Shown here: piece after piece, positions 15,984 through 28,160 of the stretch
Numbering within the stretch: the first letter of the stretch is position 1
Layout: each line of letters begins with the position of its first letter
Origin: Halodesulfovibrio sp.
Lineage (GTDB): Bacteria > Desulfobacterota > Desulfovibrionia > Desulfovibrionales > Desulfovibrionaceae
DNA: 37,458 nucleotides
Assembly: GCF_015482765.1 (NCBI RefSeq)
Contig: NZ_JADMLB010000079.1
Location: 1-37,458, forward strand
Direction: 5' to 3'
Notes under the pieces: model-generated
Database searches by the model: none
Seen by the model: only the letters and a program-made list of their open reading frames with translations
What the model was told of the DNA's origin: nothing
Position numbers and translations under genes: made by a program

Positions 15984-16571
15984 ATGGGAACGGTCAATGA
16001 AGACTGGGATACAGTCTGCACCGTGCTGGAGGGTGAAACTGCAGCGTTTGCGTTACTCATTGACCGCTATCAGAGTCATGTTGCGACAATTGTCGGGGCA
16101 CATGTGCCCAGGCAATGTGTAGCCGAGGTGGCACACGAAGTTTTCGTCCGCGCTTTTCGTTCCCTTTCCTCGTATGCACCTAAAAAGCCGTTTAAGCATT
16201 GGCTGACAACGATAGCTTTACGAAGCTGTACGGACTTTTGGCGAACCCATTATCGAAAAAAAGAATCACCTGTGAGTGATTTTTCAGATGATTCCGCCCA
16301 GTGGCTTGATGCTGTCTGCTTTGCAGAGTCGGAAGATGAGTTTGAGCGATTGAGCAGGGCGCAGGAAGCAAAAGATATTTTGCAGCGCGTTCTGGATTCA
16401 TTACCGCCGTTAGACAGAATGGTTTTGGTAATGACGCAGCTTGAAGAATATTCCGGCAGTGAGACCGCAGAGTTACTTGGGATAAGTTCTGCCAATGTAA
16501 AGGTTCGTACGTTCAGAGCAAAGCGTACGTTGAAAAAGCTTTTGAAAAAATACGGCATAGAAGGGGCGTAG
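15984..16571 (+). CDS. ECF RNA polymerase sigma factor
   Basis: The 195-residue protein has the two-domain layout of an ECF sigma factor. Region 2 covers about residues 18-90, with AEVAHEVFVRAFRSLSSY in place of the usual D-x-x-Q-x-x-F helix. Region 4 covers about 130-190, with LPPLDRMVLVMTQLEEYSGSETAELLGIS and the helix-turn-helix NVKVRTFRAKRTLKK. I chose the ATG at 15984, five bases after GGGAG, over an adjacent TTG. It is flanked by Spy-like genes and immediately followed by a small one-TM protein, the arrangement of sigma factors held by membrane anti-sigma proteins. It probably activates its own operon through the TGTAAC/CGAT promoter. Confidence 0.92.
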   Translation: MGTVNEDWDTVCTVLEGETAAFALLIDRYQSHVATIVGAHVPRQCVAEVAHEVFVRAFRSLSSYAPKKPFKHWLTTIALRSCTDFWRTHYRKKESPVSDFSDDSAQWLDAVCFAESEDEFERLSRAQEAKDILQRVLDSLPPLDRMVLVMTQLEEYSGSETAELLGISSANVKVRTFRAKRTLKKLLKKYGIEGA

Positions 16572-16572
16572 C

Positions 16573-16872
16573 ATGGCAGACAAAATGCTGGGCAAATTGA
16601 TGCGGGTTTGGAAAAAAACTCACGCAGAACAAGTTGATGTATATTTACCTTCTGCCTGGGGGCAGGGGATTATGCTTGACGTGTACGCTGCTGCGTCCGC
16701 TCCGCAGTCACCTTTTGAGCGTTTTGCTCCGCGGGTGGCAGTGACCGCCGGTGTTATGCTGCTGGCTGTAGCGGTTCCCTGTGTTGTCACCGTGAACAAT
16801 GTTTTATCGCTGCTTGATGCCCAGCTGGTGGAAGCCGGTCGGGATTCTGCACAGCTGTTTTTATCTTTCTAG
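16573..16872 (+). CDS. Small one-TM protein, probable anti-sigma factor
   Basis: This 99-residue protein starts 1 base after the sigma stop, so the two are translationally coupled. It has a cytoplasmic, positively charged N-terminus of about 52 residues, one membrane segment at about 54-75 and a short periplasmic tail. Size, topology and position match small anti-sigma factors such as CnrY, but I see no recognised zinc-binding anti-sigma motif (no HxxxCxxC). The anti-sigma role is inferred from context only. Confidence 0.65.
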   Translation: MADKMLGKLMRVWKKTHAEQVDVYLPSAWGQGIMLDVYAAASAPQSPFERFAPRVAVTAGVMLLAVAVPCVVTVNNVLSLLDAQLVEAGRDSAQLFLSF

Positions 16873-16881
16873 GAGTCAATC

Positions 16882-17289
16882 ATGAATAACTGGAAAGTTT
16901 GGACAGCGTTTGTCCTCGTATTTTTCCTCGGTGCTGCATGCGGGGTTATGGGAGGCGGTGTTGTTGTTAAGCAACGAATTGTTAAGTTTAAAGATTTGAA
17001 AGGAACCGGTTTTAATGGAGGAAAGCGGTTCCTGCGTAAGATAGAAACGAAAGTTCAACCTGATGCTGCAACGATGAAAGAAATTCGCCGCATTGTGCGC
17101 GAGAACCGCAAGGATGTTTTAGTGGTGCGCAGCAAAGCGGCGGATGAAGTTCTCAAGATTTTTACGACTACTGAGCAAGAAATTAACACGCTTCTTACGC
17201 CTGAACAGCAGGAACGCTTCGCAAAGATTACGAAGCGCGTCCGTAAACGGATCCAACGAGTACAGTTGCTGCGAACGTTACAAGAGTAA
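16882..17289 (+). CDS. Membrane-anchored Spy/CnrX-like periplasmic protein
   Basis: The 135-residue protein has one N-terminal membrane segment (about 6-28) containing a glycine-rich GVMGGGVVV stretch, then a basic, helical periplasmic domain with an LTPEQQERFAKI motif typical of the LTxxQ/heavy-metal-sensor group. It starts 9 bases after the probable anti-sigma gene and has a clear GGAG site. Position suggests a CnrX-like sensor that controls the anti-sigma protein. Unlike CnrX it contains no histidine at all, so metal sensing through the CnrX ligands is not possible; it may sense envelope damage or act through the other operon proteins. Confidence 0.65.
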   Translation: MNNWKVWTAFVLVFFLGAACGVMGGGVVVKQRIVKFKDLKGTGFNGGKRFLRKIETKVQPDAATMKEIRRIVRENRKDVLVVRSKAADEVLKIFTTTEQEINTLLTPEQQERFAKITKRVRKRIQRVQLLRTLQE

Positions 17290-17374
17290 CGCTCTTTGGG
17301 GGAGCTTACGCTGCAATATGACAAGGGATGGATTCTGTACCGCATGGGGTACATGCAAAGAAAAAGGATGAGAA

Positions 17375-17992
17375 ATGGACACACTGAAAAAAGCCTTTTT
17401 AGTGCTGGTAATGGCTTGCGCGTTTGTAACGTTTGTTATGCATTTTGATGCGAACGCTGCTCCCTACAAAAAGAACTTCGTAACAAAGCGTTCAAGTAAG
17501 GTTTATCCGGACTTACGCACGGTTGAACGTTTTATCGACGTTGCTGCCCACCGCCCGAACAAGATCAATCGTTTTATGCGCCGTAACCACGTTACAGAGA
17601 TTCCTAAAGGAACTCGTGTGGTGCGTGTCGGCTCAGCTATGGTCGCTGGAACTGATAAGGTTGTGTACAAAGTGCGCATCCCGAGTCAGGGACGCCACGG
17701 GTATATTTTTTCACGCAATTTGAAAAAAATGAAAAAGGCTCCGAAGCACACTGTGGTTAAGACGGTTGTGTATAAAGAAAAACATAACCACAAGCATAAG
17801 CACAAACATAAGCACAAGCACAAAGATGTATGTGTATACAAGCATGTGCATAATGATAACTGCACTGTGAAGTACGTAGAAAAACACGTTGAACGTCACG
17901 TGGAAACATACTCTTCTCCCAGGCACGACAAAGACCATACGGTTAGATTTAAAGCAGTACTTGGATCGCCTGTTTTTGTTATTGACCTATAG
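17375..17992 (+). CDS. Secreted SH3-like protein with His-Lys metal-binding repeat
   Basis: The 205-residue product has a signal peptide (cleavage probably after DANA, residue 28). The middle part (about 78-115), with KGTRVVRVG and a GRHGYIFSRNL end, looks like a bacterial SH3-type domain. Residues 137-150 are a strict alternation of His with Lys or Asn, encoded by a 6-base repeat. More histidines and two cysteines (C153, C163) follow, then a KHVERHV segment. The His-rich stretch is expected to bind transition metals such as Ni, Co, Zn or Cu; which one is not known. It belongs to the ECF operon, 85 bases after the CnrX-like gene, with no terminator between. I know no named family for the whole protein. 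Confidence 0.7.
   Translation: MDTLKKAFLVLVMACAFVTFVMHFDANAAPYKKNFVTKRSSKVYPDLRTVERFIDVAAHRPNKINRFMRRNHVTEIPKGTRVVRVGSAMVAGTDKVVYKVRIPSQGRHGYIFSRNLKKMKKAPKHTVVKTVVYKEKHNHKHKHKHKHKHKDVCVYKHVHNDNCTVKYVEKHVERHVETYSSPRHDKDHTVRFKAVLGSPVFVIDL
17783..17824 (+). repeat. In-frame 6-base tandem repeat (CAYAAR)
   Basis: Seven 6-base units of the form CA(C/T)AA(G/A/C) lie in tandem and in frame with the secreted protein, giving the His-Lys alternation. Such short repeats can change copy number by slippage without shifting the frame. Confidence 0.85.
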
Positions 17993-18005
17993 CAGGGAGT
18001 AGTAA

Positions 18006-18152
18006 ATGAGATACGGTATCCTACTGCTGCTCGCGGTGTTTCTGCTCACGTCATTAGGGTGCAGGCATCATCGCCACAGGCACCATCGTCCTGCTAAGTT
18101 GATTATTGTTGTAGAAGATACGACGACCAGTTCTGTAATGAACGTTGCATAA
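18006..18152 (+). CDS. 48-residue His-rich lipoprotein-like peptide
   Basis: A short open frame (ATG at 18006, TAA at 18150-18152) follows the His-Lys protein by 13 bases and has GGAG six bases before the start. The predicted product begins with an Arg and a hydrophobic stretch (residues 3-17) ending in SLGC at 16-19, close to but not a canonical lipobox. Next comes HHRHRHH at 21-27, with the hydrophobic LIIVV further on. A terminator lies right after the stop. Signal sequence, His-rich cluster, good ribosome-binding site and operon position together support a real gene. It may be an outer-membrane or periplasmic metal-binding lipopeptide (inference). Confidence 0.6.
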   Translation: MRYGILLLLAVFLLTSLGCRHHRHRHHRPAKLIIVVEDTTTSSVMNVA

Positions 18153-18160
18153 TGAAAATA

Positions 18161-18187
18161 AAAAGCCCGCTAAAGCGGGCTTTTTTT
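18161..18187 (+). terminator. ECF operon terminator
   Basis: AAAAGCCCGC (18161-18170) pairs with GCGGGCTTTT across a TAAA loop, followed by a T-run. It marks the 3' end of the sigma operon just after the 48-residue peptide gene. Confidence 0.93.
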
Positions 18188-18356
18188 ATGTGCTCAGCCG
18201 TAGAATAAGATCCGGTAAAAATAGCTTTTTGCACAGTTTGTTATTTTTTTCACAAAAACTTTTGGAATCATCTTTACGTCTTGCTCACAAATGTTTACCG
18301 TTACTATAACGCAACGCAGTATTAACCAATTTGCGTGCAGCCCATTGAAAGAAATA

Positions 18357-18384
18357 TTGACCATACCTTGCCGGATGTTATGAT
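18357..18384 (+). promoter_or_regulatory. Predicted sigma-70 promoter for the CBS gene
   Basis: TTGACC (18357-18362), a 16-base spacer and TATGAT (18379-18384) match sigma-70 well and lie about 50 bases before the CBS gene start. Confidence 0.65.
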
Positions 18385-18435
18385 TCGGCAGAGTGACAGA
18401 CTAACCGTACTCTGAAATTTTTAGGAGTTTCGATT

Positions 18436-18915
18436 ATGCTATTACGAAGACGAGCATGGGATATTTTGCGTGACGATTATCCTGTTGTTAAAATAGATGA
18501 TCCACTTGCTGAGGCTATCCGTAAACTTAACGCCTGTTCCTCAGAAGGGTGCTTATGCGCTTTGGTGGAGGATCGAAACGGTCGTGTAAAAGGTGCTGTT
18601 TCCATTTGGGATACAATGCGTTTTATGGAAGACACGTTGCTGCGTGGTGACGGCTTGAAATGCCTTGATGAAAACCGCTATGAGCAGATGTTTACGAACG
18701 CCTGTAAGGTTTCCGGTTCTATTTCCGTCAAAGACGTGATGGATAAGGATATGACAGTTGTTCGCCCTGATGAACCATTGCTGTTGGTGCTGGAGGACTT
18801 TGTTAAAAAAGGTCGCAGCTATGCCGTAGTTATGGAAGGCGGTCAGGTTATCGGTGTCATTATGATTAACGATATCTACAAAGAAATCAGTGATCAGATG
18901 CTGGCACGCGGCTAG
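18436..18915 (+). CDS. CBS-domain pair protein
   Basis: The 159-residue protein is made of two CBS motifs, about residues 10-65 and 98-155. The second is clear: VKDVMDKDMTVVRPDEPLL followed by GRSYAVVMEGGQVIGVIMINDI. CBS pairs bind adenosyl nucleotides (AMP, ATP, SAM) and regulate partner proteins or act alone as energy sensors. No catalytic or membrane domain is attached, so the partner is unknown. It has GGAG before the start, its own promoter and its own terminator, so it is monocistronic. Confidence 0.88.
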   Translation: MLLRRRAWDILRDDYPVVKIDDPLAEAIRKLNACSSEGCLCALVEDRNGRVKGAVSIWDTMRFMEDTLLRGDGLKCLDENRYEQMFTNACKVSGSISVKDVMDKDMTVVRPDEPLLLVLEDFVKKGRSYAVVMEGGQVIGVIMINDIYKEISDQMLARG

Positions 18916-18930
18916 TAAAAAAATAAAAAG

Positions 18931-18968
18931 AGAAAGCCCTCTGTTCGAAAGAGCAGAGGGCTTTTTTA
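18931..18968. terminator. Bidirectional terminator with GAAA tetraloop
   Basis: AAAGCCCTCTGTTC (18933-18946) pairs with GAGCAGAGGGCTTT (18951-18964) around a GAAA tetraloop, allowing one G-T pair. It separates the convergent CBS and 300-residue genes. Confidence 0.92.
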
Positions 18969-18987
18969 TATTCTATAATCAATCAGG

Positions 18988-19890
18988 TTAGCTGAGGGGA
19001 ACGATTTCACATTGCATGGACTGTGCGCCGTCTACAAAGCGAATACCGAAGTTTGCCCAGAAAGCTTCCATGATGTCGATGCCGTCTGATAAGTCTGCGC
19101 TTCCTTCTGAATATTTCAAACGGAAGTATTCAAGGAAAACTCGAGTGTCGTTATCCAGCATTGGTGCTTCGCTGATAAGCTGTTCTTTATCGCGAAGGTA
19201 CTCATAATGATCCATTGTTGCGTAAGCAAAGATAATGGAGAAGGAAAGCTGAGAGATTTTACCCTGAATTTGAGAGAGGAATTGAGAAATGTTTTTGTGT
19301 TTCTGGAATTCCTGCTGCTGGAATTTGATCCAGTCGTAGTATTCAGGTTTGTTATTAATAAGAGCAAGGTTGCCCATGAGAGAGGTCTCAAGGTCTGCCC
19401 GTGCTGTTTCTGAAAGTTCGGTACCCAGTGCGTTTTTTACAATGGCATCACGGAATTCAAAAGATTTACGTGCTGCATCGTACTGATCGAACAACTGGTA
19501 CAGGTTCATAAAGTAGTTTGCGTAGCGGTCTAACTTATGACGGGTAAGAACCGGGAAACGACCTTTGTTTACGATAAGGGTGAACTCGTGCCAGTAGATC
19601 GTAAAGCGTACCTGATTGTCGTAATGCTTAGTGAACAGGTTGGGATGGAACAGCAGGTAGTAGCCTTTTTCGTGAAAAATGCTTCGCGCAACCGGCTCTG
19701 CACCCGGAATGGATTTAAAGTCTGTTGTGCCCTGAAGCTCGTTCACTTTGGCATCAAAGTTTTCAGGAACAATAATTTCCTGAATGCGAAAAGCCATTGT
19801 GGCATGTCGTGCTGCTTCGCCGATGATTCCAAGTTCGTCTGTAATTTCTTTACGTTGATTGCTGTTTCCAATCTCAACAGTAATTTTCAT
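18988..19890 (-). CDS. Unrecognised 300-residue protein
   Basis: I do not recognise this family. The product is soluble, with no signal peptide or membrane helix. The N-terminal third is mixed alpha/beta and contains a HEKGYYLLFHPNLF segment followed by WHEFTLIVNKGRFP. There is a WHEF but no HExxH zinc-protease motif. The remainder appears helical. The start ATG has GGAG five bases upstream. It is monocistronic, convergent with the CBS gene, with about 400 bases of non-coding DNA upstream. Codon use looks like that of its neighbours. Confidence 0.8.
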   Translation of the reverse strand: MKITVEIGNSNQRKEITDELGIIGEAARHATMAFRIQEIIVPENFDAKVNELQGTTDFKSIPGAEPVARSIFHEKGYYLLFHPNLFTKHYDNQVRFTIYWHEFTLIVNKGRFPVLTRHKLDRYANYFMNLYQLFDQYDAARKSFEFRDAIVKNALGTELSETARADLETSLMGNLALINNKPEYYDWIKFQQQEFQKHKNISQFLSQIQGKISQLSFSIIFAYATMDHYEYLRDKEQLISEAPMLDNDTRVFLEYFRLKYSEGSADLSDGIDIMEAFWANFGIRFVDGAQSMQCEIVPLS

Positions 19891-20108
19891 GGATGCTCCG
19901 TTATAACAAAATAGTTTGTGCGCTCTTGCCTACCCTGACAAGGGATTCCCTGCAAGTATGAATTACATGCGTCGGCTTATCGAGAGTTTTTTTGCAAAAG
20001 TCTGTGTTAGAGGGCTGTGATGTTTCTTCAATAATAATGTGAATAGCCCATTGTAATTATAGAATGTATTGCAGGGCGACCTGTGTGTGTATGAACATGG
20101 GGGCGGTA
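19891..20108. other. Intergenic region upstream of the candidate RNA
   Basis: This part of the 417-base gap contains the 5' region of the 300-residue gene on the minus strand. TATAGAAT at 20058-20065 could be a -10 element for plus-strand transcription into the structured region, but no matching -35 is seen. No gene is supported. Confidence 0.35.
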
Positions 20109-20256
20109 TTGTAACCGGCGTTTTGACATGGCTTGCGGCAGGAGAAAACTTGATGAACTTGGGTTTGAGTTCTTGCCATGAGGGGGTCAAAACTGTATGG
20201 TGCGCACCTTCCTATTGGAGAAAAACACGCCGCAGGCACAGCCCTGTGGCGTTTTT
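20109..20256 (+). ncRNA. Candidate structured RNA or leader with terminator
   Basis: A long inverted repeat pairs GTTTTGAC and ATGGC (20120-20132) with GCCAT and GTCAAAAC (20175-20193), with a 6-base bulge. An alternative inner stem, GGCAGGA (20137-20143) with TCTTGCC (20171-20177), competes for the same GCC. A terminator hairpin follows at 20228-20251. This could be a small RNA or an attenuated leader of the zinc-ribbon/CarD-like gene 50 bases further on. It matches no riboswitch class that I can recognise by eye. Confidence 0.35.
20221..20256. terminator. Terminator upstream of the zinc-ribbon gene
   Basis: CGCCGCAGG (20228-20236) pairs with CCTGTGGCG (20243-20251), one G-T pair, loop CACAGC. 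An A-run precedes and a T-run follows. No gene ends just before it on the plus strand. Confidence 0.8.
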
Positions 20257-20307
20257 CTTCCTGAATTATAAGATTAGATATAACGTTGCAATAAATAGAG
20301 ATTGGAT

Positions 20308-20820
20308 ATGAGCAAAACAGGCAGCCTCTCTGCAGGTGATCGTATTGATACTAAATGCACGCGCTGTAGTGACATTACAGGGCATGTGATCGTGGCAATG
20401 GTTGGTAGCGAAATTATTAAAGTGGAATGTCAGGCTTGCGGTAGCGTGCACAAGTACCGTGAAGCTCGTGCTCCTAAAAGCAAAGCACAGGTTTCCACTG
20501 TGAAGAAAGTTCGCAATGGAGATTCCCGTAAAGAAGCAATTTCCGCTGCCCGTTCTGCTGCTGCTAAAAAAGCTGCTCAGACTCGCGCTGCACAGCGAGC
20601 TAAACAGGAAGCAGAAGCCGTTATGATTGCATGGAAAACAGCAATGGTTGCAAAAGGTTCTGACGGCGCTCGTACCTACAACATGAACGACACATTCACT
20701 AAAGGTGATGTTGTTCAGCACCCTACCTTTGGTATGGGCGAAGTACAGGCTGTTACCAAACCAAACAAAATGGAAGTTTTGTTTGAAGATGGTGTAAAAG
20801 TACTCCGTTGCCGCGTTTAG
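20308..20820 (+). CDS. Zinc-ribbon protein with CarD-like C-terminus
   Basis: The 170-residue protein has three parts. Residues 1-50 form a zinc ribbon with two CxxC pairs (CTRC and CQAC). Residues 55-115 are a Lys/Ala/Arg-rich helical linker. The last 45 residues, with FTKGDVVQHPTFGMGEVQAV and VLFEDGVKVLRC, resemble the Tudor-like RNA-polymerase-interacting fold of CarD/Mfd or a related beta-barrel. I chose the ATG at 20308 rather than a TTG two codons upstream. A role in transcription is possible but is inferred from fold resemblance only. Confidence 0.75.
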   Translation: MSKTGSLSAGDRIDTKCTRCSDITGHVIVAMVGSEIIKVECQACGSVHKYREARAPKSKAQVSTVKKVRNGDSRKEAISAARSAAAKKAAQTRAAQRAKQEAEAVMIAWKTAMVAKGSDGARTYNMNDTFTKGDVVQHPTFGMGEVQAVTKPNKMEVLFEDGVKVLRCRV

Positions 20821-20832
20821 CGATTTTCTATG

Positions 20833-20873
20833 AAAAAACGGGGATGACTATGATTAGTCATCCCCGTTTTTTT
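20833..20873. terminator. Bidirectional terminator at the edge of the repressor module
   Basis: ACGGGGATGACTA (20838-20850) pairs with TAGTCATCCCCGT (20855-20867) around TGAT, with A-run and T-run on the two sides. It can end both the zinc-ribbon gene and the minus-strand operon of the repressor module. Confidence 0.93.
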
Positions 20874-20938
20874 GTGGCTATCGTCTAGAGTAGAAGGATT
20901 TTTTTATTCTATTTGCTAAGGTGCAGAACGTTTCTGCA

Positions 20939-21229
20939 CTATTTAGAGCTGCGGGAGAACCACTCTTTGATGGATTCAGGAGAGGCTCTGTATATTCCGT
21001 CGGAGCATTTGCGGACAGGAAATTCCTCTTCCTTGATCCATTTTTTAATGGTTCCCGGGCCTGCTCCGACAGCTCTGCATATGGCGGCAAGGCCGACTAG
21101 AATTATTTGTCCGTTTGATACATAGGTACGCGCTCTGCCGTGTACTGCCGCAGGCGGCAGCAAGGGAGAGTAGTCTGCCGGAGGCGGTGCCGTATATGTA
21201 TCATTCTTATCGTATCCGTATTTATTCAT
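20939..21229 (-). CDS. Small winged-helix (excisionase-like) DNA-binding protein
   Basis: The 96-residue protein has a proline-rich N-terminus (about 1-38) and a C-terminal helix-turn-helix: LAAICRAVGAGPGTIKKWIK, then the wing EEFPVRKCSDGIYRASPESIKEWF. This is the MerR/excisionase-type winged-helix pattern also common in small phage regulators and terminase-associated proteins. It is the last gene of a three-gene minus-strand unit divergent from the CI-like repressor, 27 bases after the triple zinc-finger gene. The specific role is unknown; control of DNA recombination or transcription is possible. Confidence 0.75.
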   Translation of the reverse strand: MNKYGYDKNDTYTAPPPADYSPLLPPAAVHGRARTYVSNGQIILVGLAAICRAVGAGPGTIKKWIKEEEFPVRKCSDGIYRASPESIKEWFSRSSK

Positions 21230-21256
21230 GCCTTTACTTCCAGTCTATTCCGGTTG

Positions 21257-21703
21257 TTAGAAACCGAGTCCGATATCCGGCATACGGAACAGATCTCGCG
21301 CATACTGATCCGGTGGAATTTCTCCGGTTGCCCACGGGTCTTCAAATAAGGAATATCCGCCAACATTGTTGCCGTTGCGGTGTTTTGCAAGGCAGGCGTT
21401 ACTGCATATCTTACTGCTGACGCCGTTGGTGAATTTTTTTTCGCAGACAATGCAGTGTTTTTCATCTGTTCCTTGTCTGTCGTGTGCTGCATGGTTTGCT
21501 GAAGCAGCACAGGAGCGTGAGCAGTAGATTTGCCCTGCACGCTTTACGAAGTGCCTTCCGCACCATGGACAACTGACTGTCTGCTTAATGCGTTTGGCTT
21601 CGGCTGCGCATTTCCGAGAGCAATATCTTCCTTTACCGGCATTGTATCGTGCCGGACGCACGTAAAATTCTGTTCCGCACTGACTGCAAGGTACTACTGG
21701 CAT
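21257..21703 (-). CDS. Triple zinc-finger (C-x2-C ... C-x3-C) protein
   Basis: The 148-residue protein contains three tandem zinc-binding units: C6/C9/C28/C32, C45/C48/C61/C65 and C84/C87/C100/C104. Each has a C-x2-C knuckle followed by a (Y/I)CS-x2-C knuckle, and charged linkers separate them. The C-terminal 40 residues have no cysteines. It resembles phage-encoded multi-zinc-knuckle proteins, but I know no function. The start has a strong GGAGG and overlaps the end of the upstream gene by 10 bases, showing translational coupling. Confidence 0.75.
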   Translation of the reverse strand: MPVVPCSQCGTEFYVRPARYNAGKGRYCSRKCAAEAKRIKQTVSCPWCGRHFVKRAGQIYCSRSCAASANHAAHDRQGTDEKHCIVCEKKFTNGVSSKICSNACLAKHRNGNNVGGYSLFEDPWATGEIPPDQYARDLFRMPDIGLGF

Positions 21704-21999
21704 GACCGTCCTCCATTATAGAACGTGTTGCATCGTTCGATTGCCCGCATGATTGCGTGGCCAGAGTGATTTGTTGGTGATGCATGATGGTTGAACTCAG
21801 CATAGTAAAGCTGTAGCAGGCGCTGATGTTCTCCAACTTCAATCTGCACCATAGGTTGATACCCGTTCCCTGTTCGGGGCAGGTTGCATTCGGGGCAGAT
21901 GGAAACTCCTACGCACGCCATTCTCCAAGGTCGGGAAAAATTTCGACCACACACTGTGCAGCGAGTGCGTTCTGGGGCGTGATAATAAAAACCGGACAT
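21694..21999 (-). CDS. Small zinc-ribbon protein, first gene under the repressor
   Basis: The 101-residue protein has a zinc ribbon with C14-x2-C17 and C35-x2-C38, plus an extra C29. The C-terminal half is a helical segment rich in His and Asn (NHHASPTNHSGHAIMRAIERC). It is preceded by GGAGG and is the first gene after the divergent promoter that carries the operator. No family was recognised. Its position corresponds to the first early gene of a temperate phage, but no phage structural genes are nearby. Confidence 0.7.
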   Translation of the reverse strand: MSGFYYHAPERTRCTVCGRNFSRPWRMACVGVSICPECNLPRTGNGYQPMVQIEVGEHQRLLQLYYAEFNHHASPTNHSGHAIMRAIERCNTFYNGGRSCQ

Positions 22000-22085
22000 A
22001 TATACTTTCCTCCGAGTGTGCGTCAGAAAGAGTCTATTGTGCTTTCTGAGTGCAAAAAGTGACCATGAAGTGGCGAAGTGATCAT

Positions 22086-22114
22086 ATTGTTCACAAAATG
22101 CACAACAACGTCAA
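22086..22114 (-). promoter_or_regulatory. Promoter of the zinc-protein operon
   Basis: On the minus strand TTGACG (complement of 22109-22114) is followed after 17 bases by AACAAT (complement of 22086-22091). The spacer and -10 are covered by operator A, so a bound repressor would block it, as in phage early promoters. Confidence 0.55.
22087..22105. promoter_or_regulatory. Operator A (inverted repeat)
   Basis: Half-sites TTGTTCA and TGCACAA are separated by 5 bases. Its reverse complement matches operator B at 16 of 19 positions, including an identical TTTTG spacer. It overlaps the predicted promoter of the minus-strand operon. Confidence 0.6.
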
Positions 22115-22120
22115 GTCAGT

Positions 22121-22139
22121 TTGTACATTTTGTGCAAAA
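22121..22139. promoter_or_regulatory. Operator B (inverted repeat)
   Basis: Half-sites TTGTACA and TGCAAAA are separated by TTTTG. It lies between the two divergent promoters, just upstream of the likely repressor promoter, a position from which a CI-type protein could activate its own synthesis (inference). Confidence 0.6.
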
Positions 22140-22179
22140 AACTGTTTTATTTTTTCTAACATTGTGCTATTTCATAGAT

Positions 22180-22956
22180 ATGAACAAAGACTACAACGAA
22201 GAAGAATGGCAGCTTCAAGAGTTTATTGCCGAATCCATTACGCTTGTGGGCGGGGTGCCGAAACTTGCTGAAATTGCAGGAGTCAGCCCGCGTACTGTTT
22301 ATGCGTGGAAAAAGGGAGAGCGGCATCCTAACCGTCAGAATTTAAAGCGTCTTACTCGTTATCTTGAGAAGATTGCTGAGCAGACAGAATCTTCAACGGA
22401 GCTTTATTTTCCGCTTTCTGTCGGGGCTGAAAGGCGTCCGGCGCGGGAAAGTGCTTCCCGTGGAACTGTGGCGCAGGTTGATGACTCCTCAACCACGTTT
22501 CTTGCGCCGCCTCGTGGTGCAGATGATCATCAGGAAGAATTTTTCTTTGTGGATAAAGCGGAGGCACGCCCTAGTGCCGGTGGTGGTTCCTTAGCAACGA
22601 GTGATTCTTCTGACGGTCGTTACGCTTTTAGGCTGGATTGGATTCTGCATAAGACACAAGATGCCAATAGCTTGAAAATTATGGAAGTTATGGGGCGTTC
22701 GATGGAGAACACTCTGCATAACGGTGATTTATGTCTTGTTAATCAGTCTGATAAGAATTTGGTTGAAGACAGGGTATATGTTGTGCGTCTTGATGATGAA
22801 ATTTACGTAAAGCGGTTTTCCCGTATCCCCGGAAAGTATCTTTTCCGTGGTGATAATCGTGAGCTTGCGTATCAGGATATTGAAATTGATCCTCGTGATG
22901 AATCGCGGAGTTGGGAAGTTATCGGGCGTGTGATTTGGGCAGGAAAGGATTTATAA
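22180..22956 (+). CDS. CI/LexA-like repressor with S24 peptidase domain
   Basis: The 258-residue protein has an N-terminal helix-turn-helix (about 22-46, VPKLAEIAGVSPRTVYAWKKG) and a C-terminal S24 signal-peptidase-like domain. The catalytic pair is S174 in GRSMENT and K211 in YVKRF. An Ala-Gly at 133-134, 41 residues before the serine, is a candidate self-cleavage site by comparison with LexA and lambda CI. This suggests RecA-dependent, damage-induced inactivation. The frame is open 34 codons further upstream, but that part is hydrophobic and unlike the family. The ATG at 22180 has no Shine-Dalgarno, so the mRNA may be leaderless. Operator-like repeats flank the gene on both sides. Confidence 0.88.
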   Translation: MNKDYNEEEWQLQEFIAESITLVGGVPKLAEIAGVSPRTVYAWKKGERHPNRQNLKRLTRYLEKIAEQTESSTELYFPLSVGAERRPARESASRGTVAQVDDSSTTFLAPPRGADDHQEEFFFVDKAEARPSAGGGSLATSDSSDGRYAFRLDWILHKTQDANSLKIMEVMGRSMENTLHNGDLCLVNQSDKNLVEDRVYVVRLDDEIYVKRFSRIPGKYLFRGDNRELAYQDIEIDPRDESRSWEVIGRVIWAGKDL

Positions 22957-22963
22957 GATTTGA

Positions 22964-22989
22964 TTTTGCACATTATGTGCACAATGTGC
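22964..22989. promoter_or_regulatory. Operator-like palindromes after the repressor gene
   Basis: TGCACAT-T-ATGTGCA (22967-22981) is a perfect 15-bp palindrome extending imperfectly to 21 bp. It overlaps a second perfect palindrome, GCACA-A-TGTGC (22979-22989). The half-sites resemble those of operators A and B. Confidence 0.6.
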
Positions 22990-22990
22990 T

Positions 22991-23010
22991 TTGTTCATAA
23001 CTTTGTACAA
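22991..23010. promoter_or_regulatory. Operator-like site D
   Basis: TTGTTCA and TGTACAA with a 6-base spacer repeat the half-sites of operator A and B. It lies between the repressor stop and its terminator. Confidence 0.5.
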
Positions 23011-23269
23011 TACAAGGCGTTCCCACTTTTTGCGGGAACGCTTTTTTTATTTTTTGTTCGGAAAAAAGGTTGCAGAAACAGTATGTTATTCTTCATACAT
23101 AAAAATATTGAGTAAGAGATAAAGGTTTCAGGTGTTTACAAGGAAATAATTATTATAGAATCTTCCCTTTTTCCTTTCATATGGTAGTATCGGAACAGTT
23201 TTTATTTGAGTAATTCGTAAACAATAGGAAATATATTGCCGATGATTACAAGAACATAAGGAGGGGTTT
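23011..23269. other. Gap between repressor module and membrane-protein gene
   Basis: It holds the repressor terminator and an AT-rich stretch that presumably carries the promoter of the next gene. I see no gene. Confidence 0.4.
23018..23047 (+). terminator. Repressor terminator
   Basis: GCGTTCCC (23017-23024) pairs with GGGAACGC (23034-23041) and is followed by seven T. It closes the repressor module. Confidence 0.92.
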
Positions 23270-23761
23270 ATGAATTATCGTAAAGCAGAAAGTATGACTG
23301 AGTTGTTTTGGCAGAAGTCTCGTAATCCACTTACCTTTTGGCCTAGAATTATACTGACCTTACTTATATTTATTGCATTCTGGTCGCATGCTGTTTGGTG
23401 GATTATTTTTTTACTCTTTGTAGAAGCGGGAATAATGTTTTTTGCACCGCCTGCAACCGATCATGAAAATTGGATAACTCGCGCTACAGACGGCTTTCGA
23501 GTCTGGAGTGTTGTGCGTTCTCCTGAAGAACGTAATACTATGCTTCTTATGTTTTTATTTGCGACAATTGCCTTTCTCGGGAGTTTATGGGCACACAGCG
23601 TGTTTTGGATTCTTTTCTTCGGGGTACAGATTGCGATGGGAAAATATCTTTTAATTCGAAGATTCCTTTCTATGGCGCGAAATGTTGATTACGACATCCA
23701 TACGGGGCTGACCGAAGCAGATCTTCAGGCAATAGTGAGTCGCTGTAATCTGACAAATTAA
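23270..23761 (+). CDS. Four-helix inner-membrane protein
   Basis: The 163-residue protein has two pairs of hydrophobic segments, near residues 24-58 and 90-130, each pair containing a repeated SHAVWWI / AHSVFWI motif. This suggests an internal duplication of a two-helix hairpin. The C-terminus is soluble. There is a strong GGAGG site. It lies 21 bases before the NlpC/P60 lipoprotein gene on the same strand and is probably co-transcribed with it. I do not recognise a named family. Confidence 0.75.
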   Translation: MNYRKAESMTELFWQKSRNPLTFWPRIILTLLIFIAFWSHAVWWIIFLLFVEAGIMFFAPPATDHENWITRATDGFRVWSVVRSPEERNTMLLMFLFATIAFLGSLWAHSVFWILFFGVQIAMGKYLLIRRFLSMARNVDYDIHTGLTEADLQAIVSRCNLTN

Positions 23762-23782
23762 TTTTAGTAAAAGGTGTGATGC

Positions 23783-25354
23783 GTGGCGAAATTAGTGCGG
23801 AATTCGCAACGGTGTCATAAGAATGTGAGACTTTTTGTTGGTGTCGCTGCTCTTGTGGCTGTGTGTTTAAGTGTTGCCGCGTGTAAAAGTGTAGGCAGAT
23901 ATGCTGCGTGGGAATATGATCAGCAGAATATTATTGCAGATGTAGATACGTTATCGCAGAATCCTGTTGATTACGTAAAACGAAATGCAAACACTCCTGT
24001 GATGACTCCTGAAGAGCAGGCTGTGCAGTTTGCTGCTCTTAAAGTGTATCATTTTTCTCCGTGGCGGCAGAGTAAAGCTACTCTTTCTAAAGAAAATGCG
24101 TTTTGGGGCGTTACTGCCTATCCGCACACTATTGGGTATGCAGAGAATCTTTTGCCATGGACAAAGACAGCCATGTCCAAGCTGGTTGCCAGACAGTCTA
24201 TGCGCACGTACCCGAGCATGGCAAAGCATGCTATTTCTGTACGGAGTACTTCGCTTCGTGTGATGCCTACGGTAAAGCCTTACTTTTTTAATCCGACTCT
24301 TCCCGGTGAGGGATTTCCTTTCGATTATTTCCAAAATTCCAGTATTCATGCCGGAACACCGTTGTTTATTTCTCATGCCTCAACATCAGGAAAATGGCTT
24401 TTTGCTGAAACAGCATTTGCCAGCGGCTGGGTGCTTGCCGCAGATGTGGCGTATGTAACGCCGGAGCAGGAACGGGAATTTATGGCAGGTACCTTATACG
24501 CGATTATGCGTGACGATGTGCCACTAAAAACAGTTGATGGGCAGTATATTTCCACAGCATATGTAGGGGGAATTTTCCCTCAAGTTGCGAAAGAAAATAC
24601 ACCGCAAACACCGCCTGTTCGTTCTGCGTCTGTTGCTATCGCCAATGCAAAGCAGGCAAAGGCTCGTAAAAGTCTTTTTGAGGCAATAACAGGTGTGAAG
24701 TTAGATTCTGCACGGTTTAGAAAAATCGCTGCGAAAAAGCTGCATGTGATGCCACGTTCATATGTCTATGTGATGGTTCCTGCGCGAGATGTGCGTGGGC
24801 AGGCAGAATTTGTGACCGTTCCGGTCTGGTCAAAACGTGTGGCGCAAATTCCGGCTGAGATGACACCGAAAGCGATGGCTGAGCTTGCACGCCATATTAT
24901 CGGGCAACGATATGGATGGGGCGGATTGTATCTTGATCGGGACTGTTCTTCCGCTGTCCGTGATTTGTTTATGGCCTTTGGGGTCTGGTTGCCACGAAAT
25001 TCAAGCAGGCAGGTTGATACTGGTAAGAAGGTAATTGACCTGAAAGGGCTGACTGCCGATGAAAAGCAGGATGCCATTGTTACCAACGGTATTCCTTTCT
25101 TCTCACTCATTGGTATGCGCGGTCATATAGGATTGTACCTCGGGTATGAGCCGGTTACTAAGATGCCTTTGATGTTGCATGATTTTTGGGGAGTTCGCAC
25201 CTTCAACGCAGACAGAGAAAGTCGTGCCATTATTGGCAGGATTGCTATTACAACATTGCGCCCCGGCGAAGAACGTCGCGATGTGAAGAAAGATTATTTT
25301 TATAGCCGGATTTTGAAATTACAAACAAAGCCCGGAACGTGGAGTACGAAATAG
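23783..25354 (+). CDS. NlpC/P60 lipoprotein cell-wall peptidase with SH3 domains
   Basis: The 523-residue protein has a lipoprotein signal (VAAC, lipid-bearing C34). An N-terminal stabilising region follows, then two SH3-like domains, the first around residues 150-225 (HAISVRSTSLRVMP and GWVLAADVAYVTP). The C-terminal NlpC/P60 domain carries the catalytic Cys388 (DRDCSS), His448 (RGHIGLYLG) and a third polar residue, His466. Such enzymes cut peptide stems of peptidoglycan, usually between gamma-D-Glu and the diamino acid, and often serve in recycling. From memory, a D. vulgaris homologue has been crystallised; not checked. The start is GTG with AAGG upstream. A terminator follows. Confidence 0.9.
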   Translation: MAKLVRNSQRCHKNVRLFVGVAALVAVCLSVAACKSVGRYAAWEYDQQNIIADVDTLSQNPVDYVKRNANTPVMTPEEQAVQFAALKVYHFSPWRQSKATLSKENAFWGVTAYPHTIGYAENLLPWTKTAMSKLVARQSMRTYPSMAKHAISVRSTSLRVMPTVKPYFFNPTLPGEGFPFDYFQNSSIHAGTPLFISHASTSGKWLFAETAFASGWVLAADVAYVTPEQEREFMAGTLYAIMRDDVPLKTVDGQYISTAYVGGIFPQVAKENTPQTPPVRSASVAIANAKQAKARKSLFEAITGVKLDSARFRKIAAKKLHVMPRSYVYVMVPARDVRGQAEFVTVPVWSKRVAQIPAEMTPKAMAELARHIIGQRYGWGGLYLDRDCSSAVRDLFMAFGVWLPRNSSRQVDTGKKVIDLKGLTADEKQDAIVTNGIPFFSLIGMRGHIGLYLGYEPVTKMPLMLHDFWGVRTFNADRESRAIIGRIAITTLRPGEERRDVKKDYFYSRILKLQTKPGTWSTK

Positions 25355-25375
25355 CTCCTTCTTCAGTAGAATGTT

Positions 25376-25407
25376 AAAGCCCCCTGAATTTTCAGGGGGC
25401 TTTTTTA
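25376..25407 (+). terminator. Terminator after NlpC/P60 gene
   Basis: GCCCCCTGAA pairs with TTCAGGGGGC (25379-25400 overall), preceded by AAA and followed by six T. Confidence 0.92.
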
Positions 25408-25500
25408 TAGAATTCGCCTGCTGTCTTGAAGGACGGGGGAGAGGCCGCAGGTGTAATCTTCTTTTGCTCTCAATGCGGAAAGGCGTAGATTACGCTCTAT

Positions 25501-26145
25501 TCAGCATGAATATTTTGATCTGTGTAATGCACGTCGTTTTGCTGTATCTGTAAGAACAGGAACCGGCTGCCTGCATTGATACAGAAAAGCCGGAGGGAAG
25601 TTTCCCCAGACAATTGGTGAAGTATCCACATTGGAAAATGATCGGGCCAACTGTTTTCTGAAAGTTGAAAAGGATGGGAGAATTGCTCCGCAGACATAAG
25701 CATAGGTTATGAACACACCGTTCGGGCGCAGGCTTTCCCTGATTGCTTGTGTTAATTGGTTTTGCAGTTCCGGTGAGAATGATGCCCAAGGGAGTGAGGA
25801 AATAATGACATCTGCTTTGCCGATTGCTTTTTGCTGTAATATTTGTGGAAGGTTTTCAGCGCCGTCCAGAATAAAGTATGGCTGAGAGTATTGGGCGATA
25901 AGTGTTTTATAGAGTGCAGGGTTTTTTTCGATAGAAATAAAGGTGGCGTCTTTTTTTAAAGAACGCAGTACATGTTTCGAAATGCATCCGGTACCCGCAC
26001 CTAGTTCAACAACAACGTCGGCATGACGGAGTGATTCGCTGCTTGCGATTTGCCGACAAAGACTTGGGCTGCTTGAACAGACTGTTCCTGTTGAAAACGG
26101 ATCACGAATAAATTCTCGGAGCATGCTCCAACGGGATGATTCCAT
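25501..26145 (-). CDS. SAM-dependent methyltransferase (PmtA/rRNA-adenine-like)
   Basis: The 214-residue protein has a class I methyltransferase fold: motif I VVELGAGTG near residues 44-52, an acidic ISIEKNP at the end of strand 2, and a SSLPWASF motif (about 115-122) similar to the NxPY-like site of PmtA-type phospholipid N-methyltransferases and of rRNA adenine dimethylases. The N-terminal FIRDPFSTGTVCSSSP matches the phospholipid methyltransferase start. Substrate remains uncertain: phosphatidylethanolamine or another small substrate. The start ATG has AAAGGA upstream. It is monocistronic on the minus strand. Confidence 0.8.
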   Translation of the reverse strand: MESSRWSMLREFIRDPFSTGTVCSSSPSLCRQIASSESLRHADVVVELGAGTGCISKHVLRSLKKDATFISIEKNPALYKTLIAQYSQPYFILDGAENLPQILQQKAIGKADVIISSLPWASFSPELQNQLTQAIRESLRPNGVFITYAYVCGAILPSFSTFRKQLARSFSNVDTSPIVWGNFPPAFLYQCRQPVPVLTDTAKRRALHRSKYSC

Positions 26146-26594
26146 GTGGTTTCCTTTGCAATATAAACTGGCTGTTTTTGTTCTGCATGTGAATATGTGA
26201 TCAGGTAAAAACAGCTGTGTATTCTTAGAAAGAGTTCCGTGTGTGAAACACGGTGCCTGCTATGGTAACAGCAAAAGAAGTACCATTTAAATATAGATTC
26301 GCGTGAGGAGAGCGGCTGACATAGAATGTTTTGTAAGGTCGGCTGGTTGAGTGCAGGATTTTTTTTTACATGTCCTGAAGGACAAAATATGCAAGGTGGC
26401 AGTGTGAAAGACCTTGCACTGGAAACGGGATATTTTTTTCACGCAGCGTATAGAAATTATACGTAGAGACAGCGTTGGAGAGTTTTTACGGGAAGGCTGT
26501 TTGCGGTTGTTCCTACCTGAGTATCTTACCAGTTGACACAGAAGATTTTCCGGCTAGTCTGCACGAGGCGACATTACGCCGGAGCAGAATTTGA
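26146..26594. other. Divergent gap with serial hairpins before mtaB
   Basis: This 449-base non-coding stretch lies between the methyltransferase gene and mtaB. It has three successive inverted repeats: TGTCCT/AGGACA (26371-26384), TGCAAGGT/ACCTTGCA (26390-26418) and CGTATA/TATACG (26447-26463). Runs of eight or nine T and seven T lie near the first and third. They may form a structured mtaB leader. I see no coding region with a ribosome-binding site. Confidence 0.4.
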
Positions 26595-27893
26595 ATGAGC
26601 GAATCATATACATTTTATGCAGCAACGTTGGGCTGCAAAATTAACCAGTACGAAACACAGGCATTACGCGAAGTGTGGGTTGCCAGAGGCTTTAAAGAAG
26701 TAGACTCTGCCGACCGTGCTGAATTTATTCTTGTAAACTCCTGCGCAGTTACAGCTAAGGCTGTAAGTGATGTACGTTCAACTGTACGTCAGCTGCATAG
26801 AGCAAATGAGTCAGCACAGATTGTTGTTACAGGCTGCGCTGCACAGGTTATGGGGGATGAACTGAAGGAACTTCCGGGGGTGACTCGTATTGTTCCTCAG
26901 GATGCAAAAACTTCGTTAAAAACATGGCCGGAATTGAGAGAAGGCATGGTTGAACCGGAGAATGTATTCCCAGACTTTGCTGTAACCAACTACAATCGTG
27001 CCCGTGCTGTTGTAAAAGTACAGGACGGCTGTTCGCATCGTTGTACGTACTGTATTGTTCCGCTGACTCGCGGTCGTTCCCGTTCGCGCAGTGTGGCGGA
27101 TATTGTAACTGAAGCCCGAACCCTGTTGGAGTCCGGTTTCAGAGAGCTTATTCTTTCTGGCGTAAACCTTCGTCAATTCGGGCGTGATCTCGATGGAACA
27201 CCAGATTTTTGGGATTTGATTGACGAGTTGGAAAAAGCACTGGGTAAAAAATGGGGCGGCAAAGCACGCTTCAGAATTTCTTCTTTGGAACCGGGACAGC
27301 TTGGAGACAAGGCTCTTGAGGTTCTTGGAAGAAGTACCATGGTTGCTCCTCAACTTCATATTTCCTTGCAGTCCGGTAGTGATTCTGTACTGAAACGCAT
27401 GGGACGCGGGCATTACAAGACAGCTCCTCTTCTTGATTTTCTGGAAAAGTTACATGCTGTATGGCCGGTGTACGGGCTTGGTGCAGATATTCTTATGGGC
27501 TTTCCCGGTGAGACAGAAGAAGAATTTCAGGAAACTATGGCGTACATTACAGCTATGCCGCTGACGTATGCTCATGTTTTCCCATATTCCATTCGCCCTG
27601 GAACTGCTGCTGCCTCTATGGGAGGACAGTTACAGAAGCAGGTGAAAAAAGAGCGTGCAAAAGCAGTGCGTGATTTGATTGCCGAAAAGAAACAGGCTTT
27701 TCTACAGAAGCTTATTGATGAGAAGTTACCGTTGCACGTTGTTCTTCAGTCCGTTGAAGAAAAGAAAGGTGTTTCTCAATTCTATACAGAATGTTATTTT
27801 GACTCCCTTCCGTTCGGTGCCGGTCTTCGAGACATTTGTACCGGTGTTGCCACAGAATTTGACCGTGGCGGTTTGCGGGTAGTCGCTGAATAA
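26595..27893 (+). CDS. mtaB: tRNA N6-threonylcarbamoyladenosine (t6A37) methylthiotransferase
   Basis: MtaB adds a methylthio group to t6A37 of tRNAs decoding ANN codons, giving ms2t6A. The 432-residue protein shows the full methylthiotransferase layout. The N-terminal domain carries three auxiliary 4Fe-4S cysteines, C14 (LGCKINQYE), C50 and C81. The radical-SAM core has C146, C150 and C153 (DGCSHRCTYC). A C-terminal TRAM-like region completes it. The GCKINQYE motif, rather than GCQMN, distinguishes MtaB from MiaB and RimO. A GGAG lies 10 bases upstream of the ATG. It is monocistronic with a long leader and its own terminator. Confidence 0.95.
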   Translation: MSESYTFYAATLGCKINQYETQALREVWVARGFKEVDSADRAEFILVNSCAVTAKAVSDVRSTVRQLHRANESAQIVVTGCAAQVMGDELKELPGVTRIVPQDAKTSLKTWPELREGMVEPENVFPDFAVTNYNRARAVVKVQDGCSHRCTYCIVPLTRGRSRSRSVADIVTEARTLLESGFRELILSGVNLRQFGRDLDGTPDFWDLIDELEKALGKKWGGKARFRISSLEPGQLGDKALEVLGRSTMVAPQLHISLQSGSDSVLKRMGRGHYKTAPLLDFLEKLHAVWPVYGLGADILMGFPGETEEEFQETMAYITAMPLTYAHVFPYSIRPGTAAASMGGQLQKQVKKERAKAVRDLIAEKKQAFLQKLIDEKLPLHVVLQSVEEKKGVSQFYTECYFDSLPFGAGLRDICTGVATEFDRGGLRVVAE

Positions 27894-27898
27894 AAAAT

Positions 27899-27932
27899 GA
27901 AAAGCAGCCGGATGTGTTCCGGCTGCTTTTTT
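27899..27932 (+). terminator. mtaB terminator
   Basis: AAAGCAGCCGGA pairs with TCCGGCTGCTTT around a 5-base loop (27901-27929), followed by further T. Confidence 0.93.
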
Positions 27933-28115
27933 CTATATTATTATTTTTCCACGCACTGATGCGGTTATTTGCTGAAAAGTGACAACTCTATGTTATAACA
28001 TGTCTTGAATAAAGAATGGATGTAGAGTAGGTAGCGTGGAGCGCCGTAGCAAGCAACTTGTTGCGGCTATTCCCATATGCAGGACTGACATCTTGCATTC
28101 AAAAAAAATCTAAAT

Positions 28116-28138: not shown

Positions 28139-28160
28139 TTTGACATATAGAGAGGAACGT

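What the first reader, a model, noticed from the sequence alone, without database searches (positions are those of the whole stretch)
20939..23045. Stand-alone CI/LexA-type switch controlling three small zinc and winged-helix proteins
An S24 repressor with an intact Ser-Lys pair (S174, K211) and a candidate Ala-Gly cleavage site diverges from three small genes: a zinc ribbon, a triple zinc-finger protein and an excisionase-like winged helix. Operator A sits exactly on the -10 and spacer of the minus-strand promoter, and operator B lies between the two promoters, as in a phage immunity region. No integrase, replication or structural gene is nearby, and terminators close both ends. It may be a domesticated phage switch driving cysteine-rich proteins after DNA damage.
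Basis: partly seen in the sequence, partly recalled or inferred. Interest (0 to 1): 0.7.

Follow-up and report, generated by a model that had tools for sequence, protein, structure and literature searches.

The report
Phage-derived genetic switch kept by host
A small on/off control unit that looks borrowed from a virus of bacteria sits at one fixed place in all ten genomes examined of a genus of sulfate-reducing bacteria, is being preserved by selection, and probably turns on three small DNA-binding proteins, perhaps after DNA damage.

Summary
The anatomy is real. A CI/LexA-type repressor (258 aa; A133-G134, S174, K211) diverges from a zinc-ribbon/helical protein, a triple treble-clef protein and a small HTH protein. 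The organism is a Halodesulfovibrio. All four genes lie at the same site in 10 of 10 genomes of the genus, with median dN/dS 0.025-0.107 in six of them. The module sits at another fixed site in 8 of 8 Nitratidesulfovibrio genomes, and compact versions at two more sites in two further genera. No copy lies in a recognisable prophage by the flanks read. Longer versions add an SSB-like gene and, in one clade, an endolysin-family gene; prophages carry relatives of the triple finger, so phage descent is likely. New here: a third operator after the repressor gene, operators concentrated at this locus (12 of 21 sites in six genomes), and an invariant 22-mer at the operon start, unique in each of six genomes. 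Closest logic: Caulobacter RogA-GafYZ, Pseudomonas AlpR-AlpA. Damage control is inferred; two outlying genera lack the catalytic residues. Effector function is unknown. New variant of a known kind.

The parts
22180..22956 (+). Stand-alone CI/LexA-type repressor, 258 aa: N-terminal HTH, S24 domain; A133-G134 presumed cleavage site, S174, K211
   Evidence: Pfam S24 6e-18, HTH_3 4e-6; phrog_4 3e-33; residues invariant in 11 of 11; median dN/dS 0.046
21694..21999 (-). Zinc-ribbon protein, 101 aa: C14/C17/C35/C38 ribbon plus conserved C-terminal helical pair (IE..EH..LL.LYYA ... CN)
   Evidence: Alignments A1 and A5; AlphaFold model, pLDDT 65.6, helices 55-73 and 77-94; median dN/dS 0.089
21257..21703 (-). 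Triple treble-clef zinc-finger protein, 148 aa, with a conserved C-terminal tail (DPWATG-IPPD...R-PD--LGF)
   Evidence: phrog_1271 4e-14 on the finger part, matched by 24 of 24 members of A6; model pLDDT 76.5, tail about 57; median dN/dS 0.025; start overlaps the end of the ribbon gene
20939..21229 (-). Excisionase/AlpA-like small HTH protein, 96 aa; variable N-terminus, conserved C-terminal HTH
   Evidence: HTH_17 0.0018 and phrog_66 0.002, weak; alignment A4; median dN/dS 0.107
22109..22114 (-). -35 box TTGACG of the operon promoter
   Evidence: 6 of 6 columns invariant in six genomes; present in 11 of 11 loci; TTGACG or TTGACC also upstream of the operons of G028 and G026
22086..22091 (-). 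-10 box AACAAT of the operon promoter
   Evidence: 6 of 6 columns invariant
22091..22107 (.). Operator A, over 16 of 17 spacer bases and the first -10 base of the operon promoter
   Evidence: Inverted copy of operator B; 13 of 17 columns invariant
22121..22137 (.). Operator B, TTGTACATTTTGTGCAA, between the two promoters
   Evidence: 17 of 17 columns invariant in six genomes; 2 mismatches to the palindrome
22966..22982 (.).
   Evidence: 1 mismatch to the palindrome; core conserved in 6 of 6; a site after the repressor gene in 9 of 11 loci at 14 or more of 16
22060..22081 (-). Invariant 22-mer TCACTTCGCCACTTCATGGTCA at the presumed start of the operon transcript
   Evidence: Identical in 6 of 6 genomes; longest invariant run of the region; one copy per genome at up to 3 mismatches
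22023..22049 (-). Leader inverted repeat TCAGAAAG-N11-CTTTCTGA before the Shine-Dalgarno sequence of the ribbon gene
   Evidence: All 8 pairs kept in 6 of 6, two through G-U changes; the leader as a whole folds no better than shuffles (z -0.03)
20833..20872 (.). Left boundary: perfect 18-nt inverted repeat ending in a T run, placed to end transcription from both sides (inferred)
   Evidence: I1
23017..23048 (+). Right boundary: terminator-like hairpin and T7 after the repressor and operator C
   Evidence: Stem 23017-23041, listed for the minus strand; plus-strand T7 read directly; CGCTTTTTTT end invariant in six genomes

Best explanation
A domesticated, phage-derived regulatory switch, long resident at one chromosomal site. 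In growing cells the repressor binds operators A and B, silencing the ribbon-finger-HTH operon (A covers its promoter) and probably tuning its own transcription; operator C behind its gene may add cooperative or looped binding. When RecA is activated, the repressor should cut itself at A133-G134 with the S174/K211 pair and release the operon. Its products, three small probably nucleic-acid-binding proteins, are most simply regulators acting in trans or at the operon itself, not enzymes. Shown: gene layout, intact residues, conserved operators concentrated at the locus, fixed site across the genomes examined, purifying selection. Inferred from family knowledge: binding, cleavage, induction. Inferred with little support: what the three proteins do.
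For: Four genes at the same site in 10 of 10 Halodesulfovibrio genomes; same module at another fixed site in 8 of 8 Nitratidesulfovibrio. Median dN/dS 0.025-0.107 for the four genes against 0.026-0.098 for six neighbours, no internal stops. A-G, S and K kept in 14 of 14 repressors of these two genera in A7. Operator, at up to 2 mismatches, in six genomes: 21 sites, 12 of them here, two per genome. Operator B, -35 and -10 fully invariant. Phage descent: phrog_4 repressor, relatives of the triple finger near integrase genes, endolysin-family gene in the longer version (phrog_894 8e-14).
Against: No binding, cleavage or expression data. Two compact relatives have lost catalytic residues (G026 K to R; G028 S to C and K to R; no A-G at the aligned place in either), so damage control is not universal. 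Nine of the 21 operator-like sites lie elsewhere, against one palindromic site for the backwards control pattern; one of them (G007) has only 1 mismatch and four (G000, G004, G007, G009) are the same sequence and may be one orthologous second site, so a small wider regulon is not excluded. G002 has no intergenic operator at 12 of 16 or better. Several dS values are near saturation. The HTH protein is a weak family match, so 'excisionase-like' is soft.
Confidence: 0.6

Rival explanations
1. Master switch of the RogA or AlpR kind: the operon products activate or antiterminate a separate phage-derived programme elsewhere in the genome (gene transfer agent, tailocin or lysis genes).
For: RogA is a LexA-like S24 repressor without catalytic residues that represses gafYZ, whose products turn on a GTA cluster elsewhere; ChIP found RogA at only two promoters (PMC9632790 passages). 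AlpR, cleaved after DNA damage, represses the antiterminator gene alpA (PMC7969949 passages). Here too operators are concentrated at the locus and the products are small, probably DNA-binding proteins; the longer version carries an endolysin-family gene; a Desulfovibrio is among the organisms with a GTA.
Against: No target locus was found. The invariant 22-mer has no second copy at up to 3 mismatches in six genomes. Structural phage genes were not searched for in the own genome. None of the three proteins was compared with GafY, GafZ or AlpA.
Confidence: 0.2
2. Decaying or cryptic prophage remnant without function that happens to persist.
For: Phage-type parts; a partial endolysin-family remnant in G005; no room for the ssb and endolysin genes between finger and HTH genes in the window's clade (27-35 bases).
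Against: Presence in 10 of 10 and 8 of 8 genomes, no stops, low dN/dS, invariant operator and leader.
Confidence: 0.07
3. Superinfection immunity: the host keeps the repressor to block phages that use the same operator, and the operon is kept for company.
For: CI-type repressor with conserved operators; dN/dS 0.046.
Against: No relative of the repressor confirmed in viral contigs (33 pattern stretches, none confirmed) and none at 60% identity or more among 272 matching phage records; in the window's clade the triple finger is under stronger constraint than the repressor (0.025).
Confidence: 0.08
4. Part of a small mobile element that moves by a recombinase encoded elsewhere.
For: Different chromosomal sites in four genera; excisionase-like last gene; an imperfect T-rich direct repeat (14 of 16) near the two ends, 20893-20908 and 23036-23051.
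Against: One site per genus in the two genera with many genomes, conserved flanks, no integrase read nearby, no tRNA in the window; the repeat lies in terminator-like T runs.
Confidence: 0.05

Closest known systems
Caulobacter crescentus RogA-gafYZ (PMC9632790, passages read)
   Same: Stand-alone LexA/CI-like S24 repressor with few genomic targets, controlling a short operon of DNA-binding proteins; two compact relatives here have also lost S24 catalytic residues, as RogA has
   Different: RogA is catalytically dead while the window repressor keeps the full set; gafYZ were not compared with these operon proteins; no GTA locus shown here
Pseudomonas aeruginosa AlpR-AlpA-alpBCDE (PMC7969949, passages read)
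   Same: Self-cleaving repressor that controls a small regulator gene; lysis logic; the longer version of the module here includes an endolysin-family gene
   Different: No alpBCDE-like genes shown; no endolysin-family gene in the window's operon; operon proteins not compared with AlpA
Phage lambda CI immunity region (recalled, no call)
   Same: Divergent promoters, repeated operators over the promoters, a distant operator set, A-G/S/K self-cleavage
   Different: No cro, no replication, integration or structural genes; unrelated effectors; fixed in the host chromosome
HNH/endonuclease VII-type phage zinc fingers (phrog_1271; BFVD hits)
   Same: C-x2-C...C-x3-C finger units of the triple-finger protein
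   Different: Three fingers and a conserved tail; the family matches listed for the window's protein fall on the fingers

Membership tests
CI/LexA-type (S24) repressors | HTH domain joined to an S24 domain with A/C-G site, Ser and Lys | tested here: met
   Pfam PF00717 6e-18 and PF01381 4e-6; A133-G134, S174, K211
CI/LexA-type (S24) repressors | Binds palindromic operators at the promoters it controls | tested here: inconclusive
   Conserved palindromes at the promoters; binding not measured
CI/LexA-type (S24) repressors | RecA-stimulated self-cleavage | not testable with these tools
   Residues present only
LexA (the SOS regulator itself) | LexA equivalog score | tested here: not met
   TIGR00498 24.2 bits against a cut-off of 110.95
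Prophage | Integrase, replication or structural genes around the repressor | tested here: not met
   Same non-phage flanks in 10 of 10 genomes of the genus; window 15000-29000 read by eye. Not a systematic phage-gene scan. In the divergent clade an SSB-like and an endolysin-family gene lie inside the module
RogA-GafYZ GTA control | Local S24 repressor of activators that switch on a distant GTA cluster | not tested
   Operators concentrated locally; GTA genes not searched; GafY/GafZ not compared
AlpR-AlpA self-lysis | AlpA-type antiterminator and alpBCDE lysis genes | not tested
   No direct comparison with AlpA or AlpB-E was made
PADLOC defence systems | Match to a defence model | tested here: not met
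   Seven proteins scanned; nothing better than 0.0019, an HTH stretch of the repressor

The most novel reading that the evidence does not exclude
The module is the missing master control of a domesticated phage programme (gene transfer agent, tailocin or lysis) in the Desulfovibrionaceae: a RogA/AlpR-like repressor, damage-cleavable in two genera and damage-blind in others, releasing a new set of regulators (a helical ribbon protein, a triple-finger protein with a conserved tail that may bind a partner, and an HTH protein) that act on a distant locus.
Probability: 0.18. Interest if true: 0.75.

Novelty: new variant of a known kind. Interest (0 to 1): 0.5.

Why it matters
It is a clean case of a phage immunity switch that hosts have kept at fixed sites in all genomes examined of two genera, with intact operators, while the rest of the phage is gone. 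The ribbon protein gave no phage match by the searches made, so part of the operon may be a host-side invention. The module suggests a concrete entry point for finding what controls phage-derived programmes in sulfate reducers, where a gene transfer agent has been reported but only cursorily characterised (PMC11841831, passage). Comparing cleavable and non-cleavable versions of the same module also lets one ask how a damage switch is rewired.

Tried and rejected
Whole prophage or integrative element around the module: not seen in the flanks read. Phage homes for the parts: viral-contig scans gave the triple finger in 5 loci, the HTH protein in 1 (a contig of the same length as a Nitratidesulfovibrio liaohensis contig, which IMG/VR lists as viral and which I read only in part), ribbon 0 (34 pattern stretches) and repressor 0 (33). 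These scans start from short peptide patterns and return few candidates, so absence is weak. Fold and sequence searches in the PDB gave nothing reliable for the ribbon (best E 1.8; profile best 0.002, a eukaryotic RING finger) or the triple finger (best 0.036 and 0.031); the viral structure library returned phage HNH and zinc-finger proteins (best E 3e-7, TM-scores mostly 0.2-0.4). A wider regulon was looked for with the operator (nine sites elsewhere, not pursued except one) and the 22-mer (none). The site at G000 C10:71226, near a TPR-type gene, was read. Leader hairpin: pairs kept but mostly unvaried, and the fold is not better than shuffles. The second S24 gene of the genome was followed in case it marked a prophage; it lies beside mutS. 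Empty-site test: the neighbour gene at 20302 was found in 29 of 79 family genomes; five of those regions, from four other genera, were compared and none held the cassette or the NlpC/MtaB flank, so the ancestral empty site could not be shown. Literature: the listings (in part capped: 20 of 85, 20 of 708, 12 of 32) showed no paper describing this module; 57 and 99 were mostly unrelated papers. Only passages of PMC7969949, PMC9632790 and PMC11841831 were read.

Full report
What is there. Its genus is Halodesulfovibrio: genome G008 of the same genus has a contig of the same length (178,961) as Halodesulfovibrio spirochaetisodalis JC271. Between a small zinc-ribbon/CarD-like gene (20302-20820) and a membrane/NlpC/MtaB stretch (23270 onward) lie a repressor on the plus strand (22180-22956) and three small genes on the minus strand (21999 down to 20939). 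Names of neighbours are mostly my reading of the translations.

The repressor. Pfam S24 6e-18 and HTH_3 4e-6, PHROG transcriptional repressor 3e-33. It is not LexA by the curated model (24.2 bits against 110.95). Residues A133-G134, S174 and K211 are invariant in 11 of 11 aligned repressors, ten of Halodesulfovibrio and one of Desulfovibrio sp. A2. S24 domains as such are common: 77 of 99 relatives have some match.

Fixed site and selection. All four genes are found in 10 of 10 genomes of the genus. Tblastn on nine relatives' regions places them, as in the window, between the CarD-like gene on one side and NlpC and MtaB genes on the other (DNA match). In six close genomes the medians of pairwise dN/dS are 0.025 (triple finger), 0.046 (repressor), 0.089 (ribbon) and 0.107 (HTH protein), against 0.026-0.098 for six neighbouring genes, with no internal stops (two of the neighbours in five genomes). 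Several dS values are near saturation or undefined (8 of 15 pairs for the HTH gene), so these are rough, but they argue against decay. In Nitratidesulfovibrio the medians are 0.215 (ribbon), 0.051 (finger), 0.100 (repressor) and 0.392 (SSB-like); in the divergent Halodesulfovibrio clade 0.20, 0.27 and 0.07, with 0.22 for the endolysin-family gene and 0.28 for the SSB-like gene (the HTH gene was not included). Constraint is steadiest on the repressor, and strongest on the triple finger in two of three clades.

Other genera. A ribbon profile hit 18 of 297 genomes of the order: 10 Halodesulfovibrio, 7 of genus g38, and G026 weakly, with a stop inside the reported match (read in its own short frame it is open). 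It hit 1 of 395 genomes drawn over the phylum, the own genome; other carriers were evidently not in that draw. The repressor profile gave a strong match in 8 of 8 genomes of g38, the HTH profile likewise in 8 of 8, and ribbon and finger genes lie beside the repressor in all eight, the finger cut by contig ends in two, where the HTH gene is on another contig. The site differs from that in Halodesulfovibrio but is the same within the genus: the right-hand histidine-kinase-like gene is beside it in 8 of 8. The HTH profile as a whole matched 61 of 348 genomes in 22 of 59 genera, mostly weakly, so small HTH proteins of this sort are wider than the module. G026 (genus g18) has repressor, ribbon-like, finger and HTH genes between a cobyrinate-synthase-like gene and transporter/peptidase genes; G028 (genus g20) has repressor, finger and HTH genes beside ruvAB, without a ribbon gene found. 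One result cuts the other way: IMG/VR lists as viral a contig of the same length (34,153) as the N. liaohensis contig that holds the finger end and the HTH gene; it was read only in part.

What varies and what is the core. In Nitratidesulfovibrio (6 of 8; the other two contigs end before it) and in the divergent Halodesulfovibrio genomes (G002, G003, G005, G006) an SSB-like gene follows the finger gene (Pfam SSB 3.5e-7 for Desulfovibrio sp. A2; no Pfam hit for the two Halodesulfovibrio versions tested; the link between the two sets is weak, 25%, 3e-5). G002, G003 and G006 also have an endolysin-family gene (phrog_894 8e-14 for G003; Pfam M15_3 below cut-off for G003 and G006); G005 has a partial remnant. 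A further small gene of unknown kind follows the repressor in these genomes. In the six-genome clade of the window only 27-35 bases separate finger and HTH genes; those genomes were not searched for the missing genes elsewhere. Whether the longer form is older is inference. The common core is repressor, finger and HTH, with the ribbon protein in three of the four genera. In G026 the ribbon cysteines are gone while I53, E54, E57, H58, L61, L62, L64, Y65, A67, A86, C90, N91 and G96 remain, so the helical C-terminal half is the conserved part. The triple finger's last 30-odd residues are poorly ordered in the model (pLDDT about 57) yet include R140, P142, D143, L146, G147 and F148, invariant in 24 of 24 sequences, which suggests a partner-binding tail. 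This is inference.

Phage descent. Relatives of the triple finger outside the module lie near integrase-like genes in G007, G001 and G005, and on the same contig as a Mu-type transposase-like gene or an S24 repressor-like gene, some kilobases away, in two viral contigs. All 24 aligned finger proteins match phrog_1271, an HNH-endonuclease family; for the window's protein the match falls on the fingers. The ribbon protein had no match in 50,697 phage records. The repressor matched 272 phage records, all below 60% identity.

Control DNA. Three 17-bp sites fit TTGCACAT-N-ATGTGCAA: A (22091-22107), B (22121-22137), C (22966-22982). In the window the palindrome at up to 3 mismatches finds B and C only, with 0.28 expected; 3 of 100 shuffles did as well. 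A is recognised as the inverted copy of B. Over six genomes at up to 2 mismatches there are 21 sites: two at this locus in each genome (12) and 9 elsewhere; the backwards control pattern gave one. Four of the nine have the same sequence in G000, G004, G007 and G009, and one in G007 has a single mismatch. The operator is thus concentrated here, but a small wider regulon is not excluded. In the alignment of the six intergenic regions operator B (17/17), -35 (6/6) and -10 (6/6) are invariant and A is 13/17, against 32/60 for the remaining leader. A site after the repressor gene is present at 14 or more of 16 in 9 of 11 loci; G006 has none and Desulfovibrio sp. A2 reaches 12. Between the genes, G005, G006, G003 and Desulfovibrio sp. 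A2 reach 13 and G002 has none at 12 or more. TTGACG stands upstream of the operon in 11 of 11 loci; G028 and G026 have TTGACG and TTGACC.

The invariant 22-mer. Just downstream of the operon -10, at 22060-22081, TCACTTCGCCACTTCATGGTCA is identical in six of six genomes, the longest invariant run of the region, and occurs once in each of these genomes at up to 3 mismatches. It contains CACTTC twice, two bases apart. It could be an autoregulatory site for an operon product or an RNA element; it does not reveal a wider regulon. I did not see it by eye in the divergent clade's intergenic sequences.

How it likely works. By analogy with CI/LexA systems, the repressor shuts the operon through A and B, with C as an auxiliary site, and self-cleaves on DNA damage. 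This is expected for the 14 repressors with intact residues in alignment A7 but not for G026 (K to R) or G028 (S to C, K to R), neither of which has A-G at the aligned place. Caulobacter RogA, an S24 repressor that lacks the catalytic residues, represses gafYZ, whose products activate a GTA cluster, and was found by ChIP at two promoters only (PMC9632790, passages). P. aeruginosa AlpR is cleaved after damage and represses the antiterminator gene alpA (PMC7969949, passages). The module shares this architecture. Whether it shares the outcome is untested: I did not search for GTA, tailocin or lysis loci in the own genome, and did not compare the proteins with GafY, GafZ or AlpA.

Verdict. Observation confirmed and extended; interpretation partly supported; a phage-derived switch domesticated in at least two genera, new as a combination, of a known kind.

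Noticed in passing
window 22966-22982: Third and best operator palindrome, shortly after the repressor stop; core conserved in 6 of 6 close genomes.
   Followed up: yes
window 22060-22081 (-): 22-mer at the presumed operon transcript start, invariant in six genomes and unique in each.
   Followed up: partly
L219:14524-15171 (-), L221:7878-8570 (-): A second stand-alone S24/HTH regulator (about 215-230 aa) beside mutS, with the same neighbours in the two genomes read; possibly a general damage regulator.
   Followed up: partly
L067:5083-5457, L068:4981-5355: Triple-finger paralogs shortened, with most of the third finger missing; the L067 copy lies beside an integrase-like gene.
   Followed up: no
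L118:7164-7421: Ribbon-protein relative that has lost the zinc-ribbon cysteines but keeps the helical half.
   Followed up: partly
window 21694-21999: Low synonymous divergence of the ribbon gene (median dS 0.59 against 1.4-1.8 for the other three module genes), hinting at extra constraint; but the neighbouring CarD-like gene has the same value.
   Followed up: no
G000:C10:71226-71242 (L084): Operator-like site TTGCAATTAATGTGCAA near a TPR-type gene, the same sequence also in G004, G007 and G009; a possible second target.
   Followed up: no
L135, L136 (IMGVR_UViG_2899433461_000003): A contig listed as viral by IMG/VR has the length of a Nitratidesulfovibrio liaohensis contig and carries the end of the module; likely a chromosomal contig classed as viral.
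   Followed up: no
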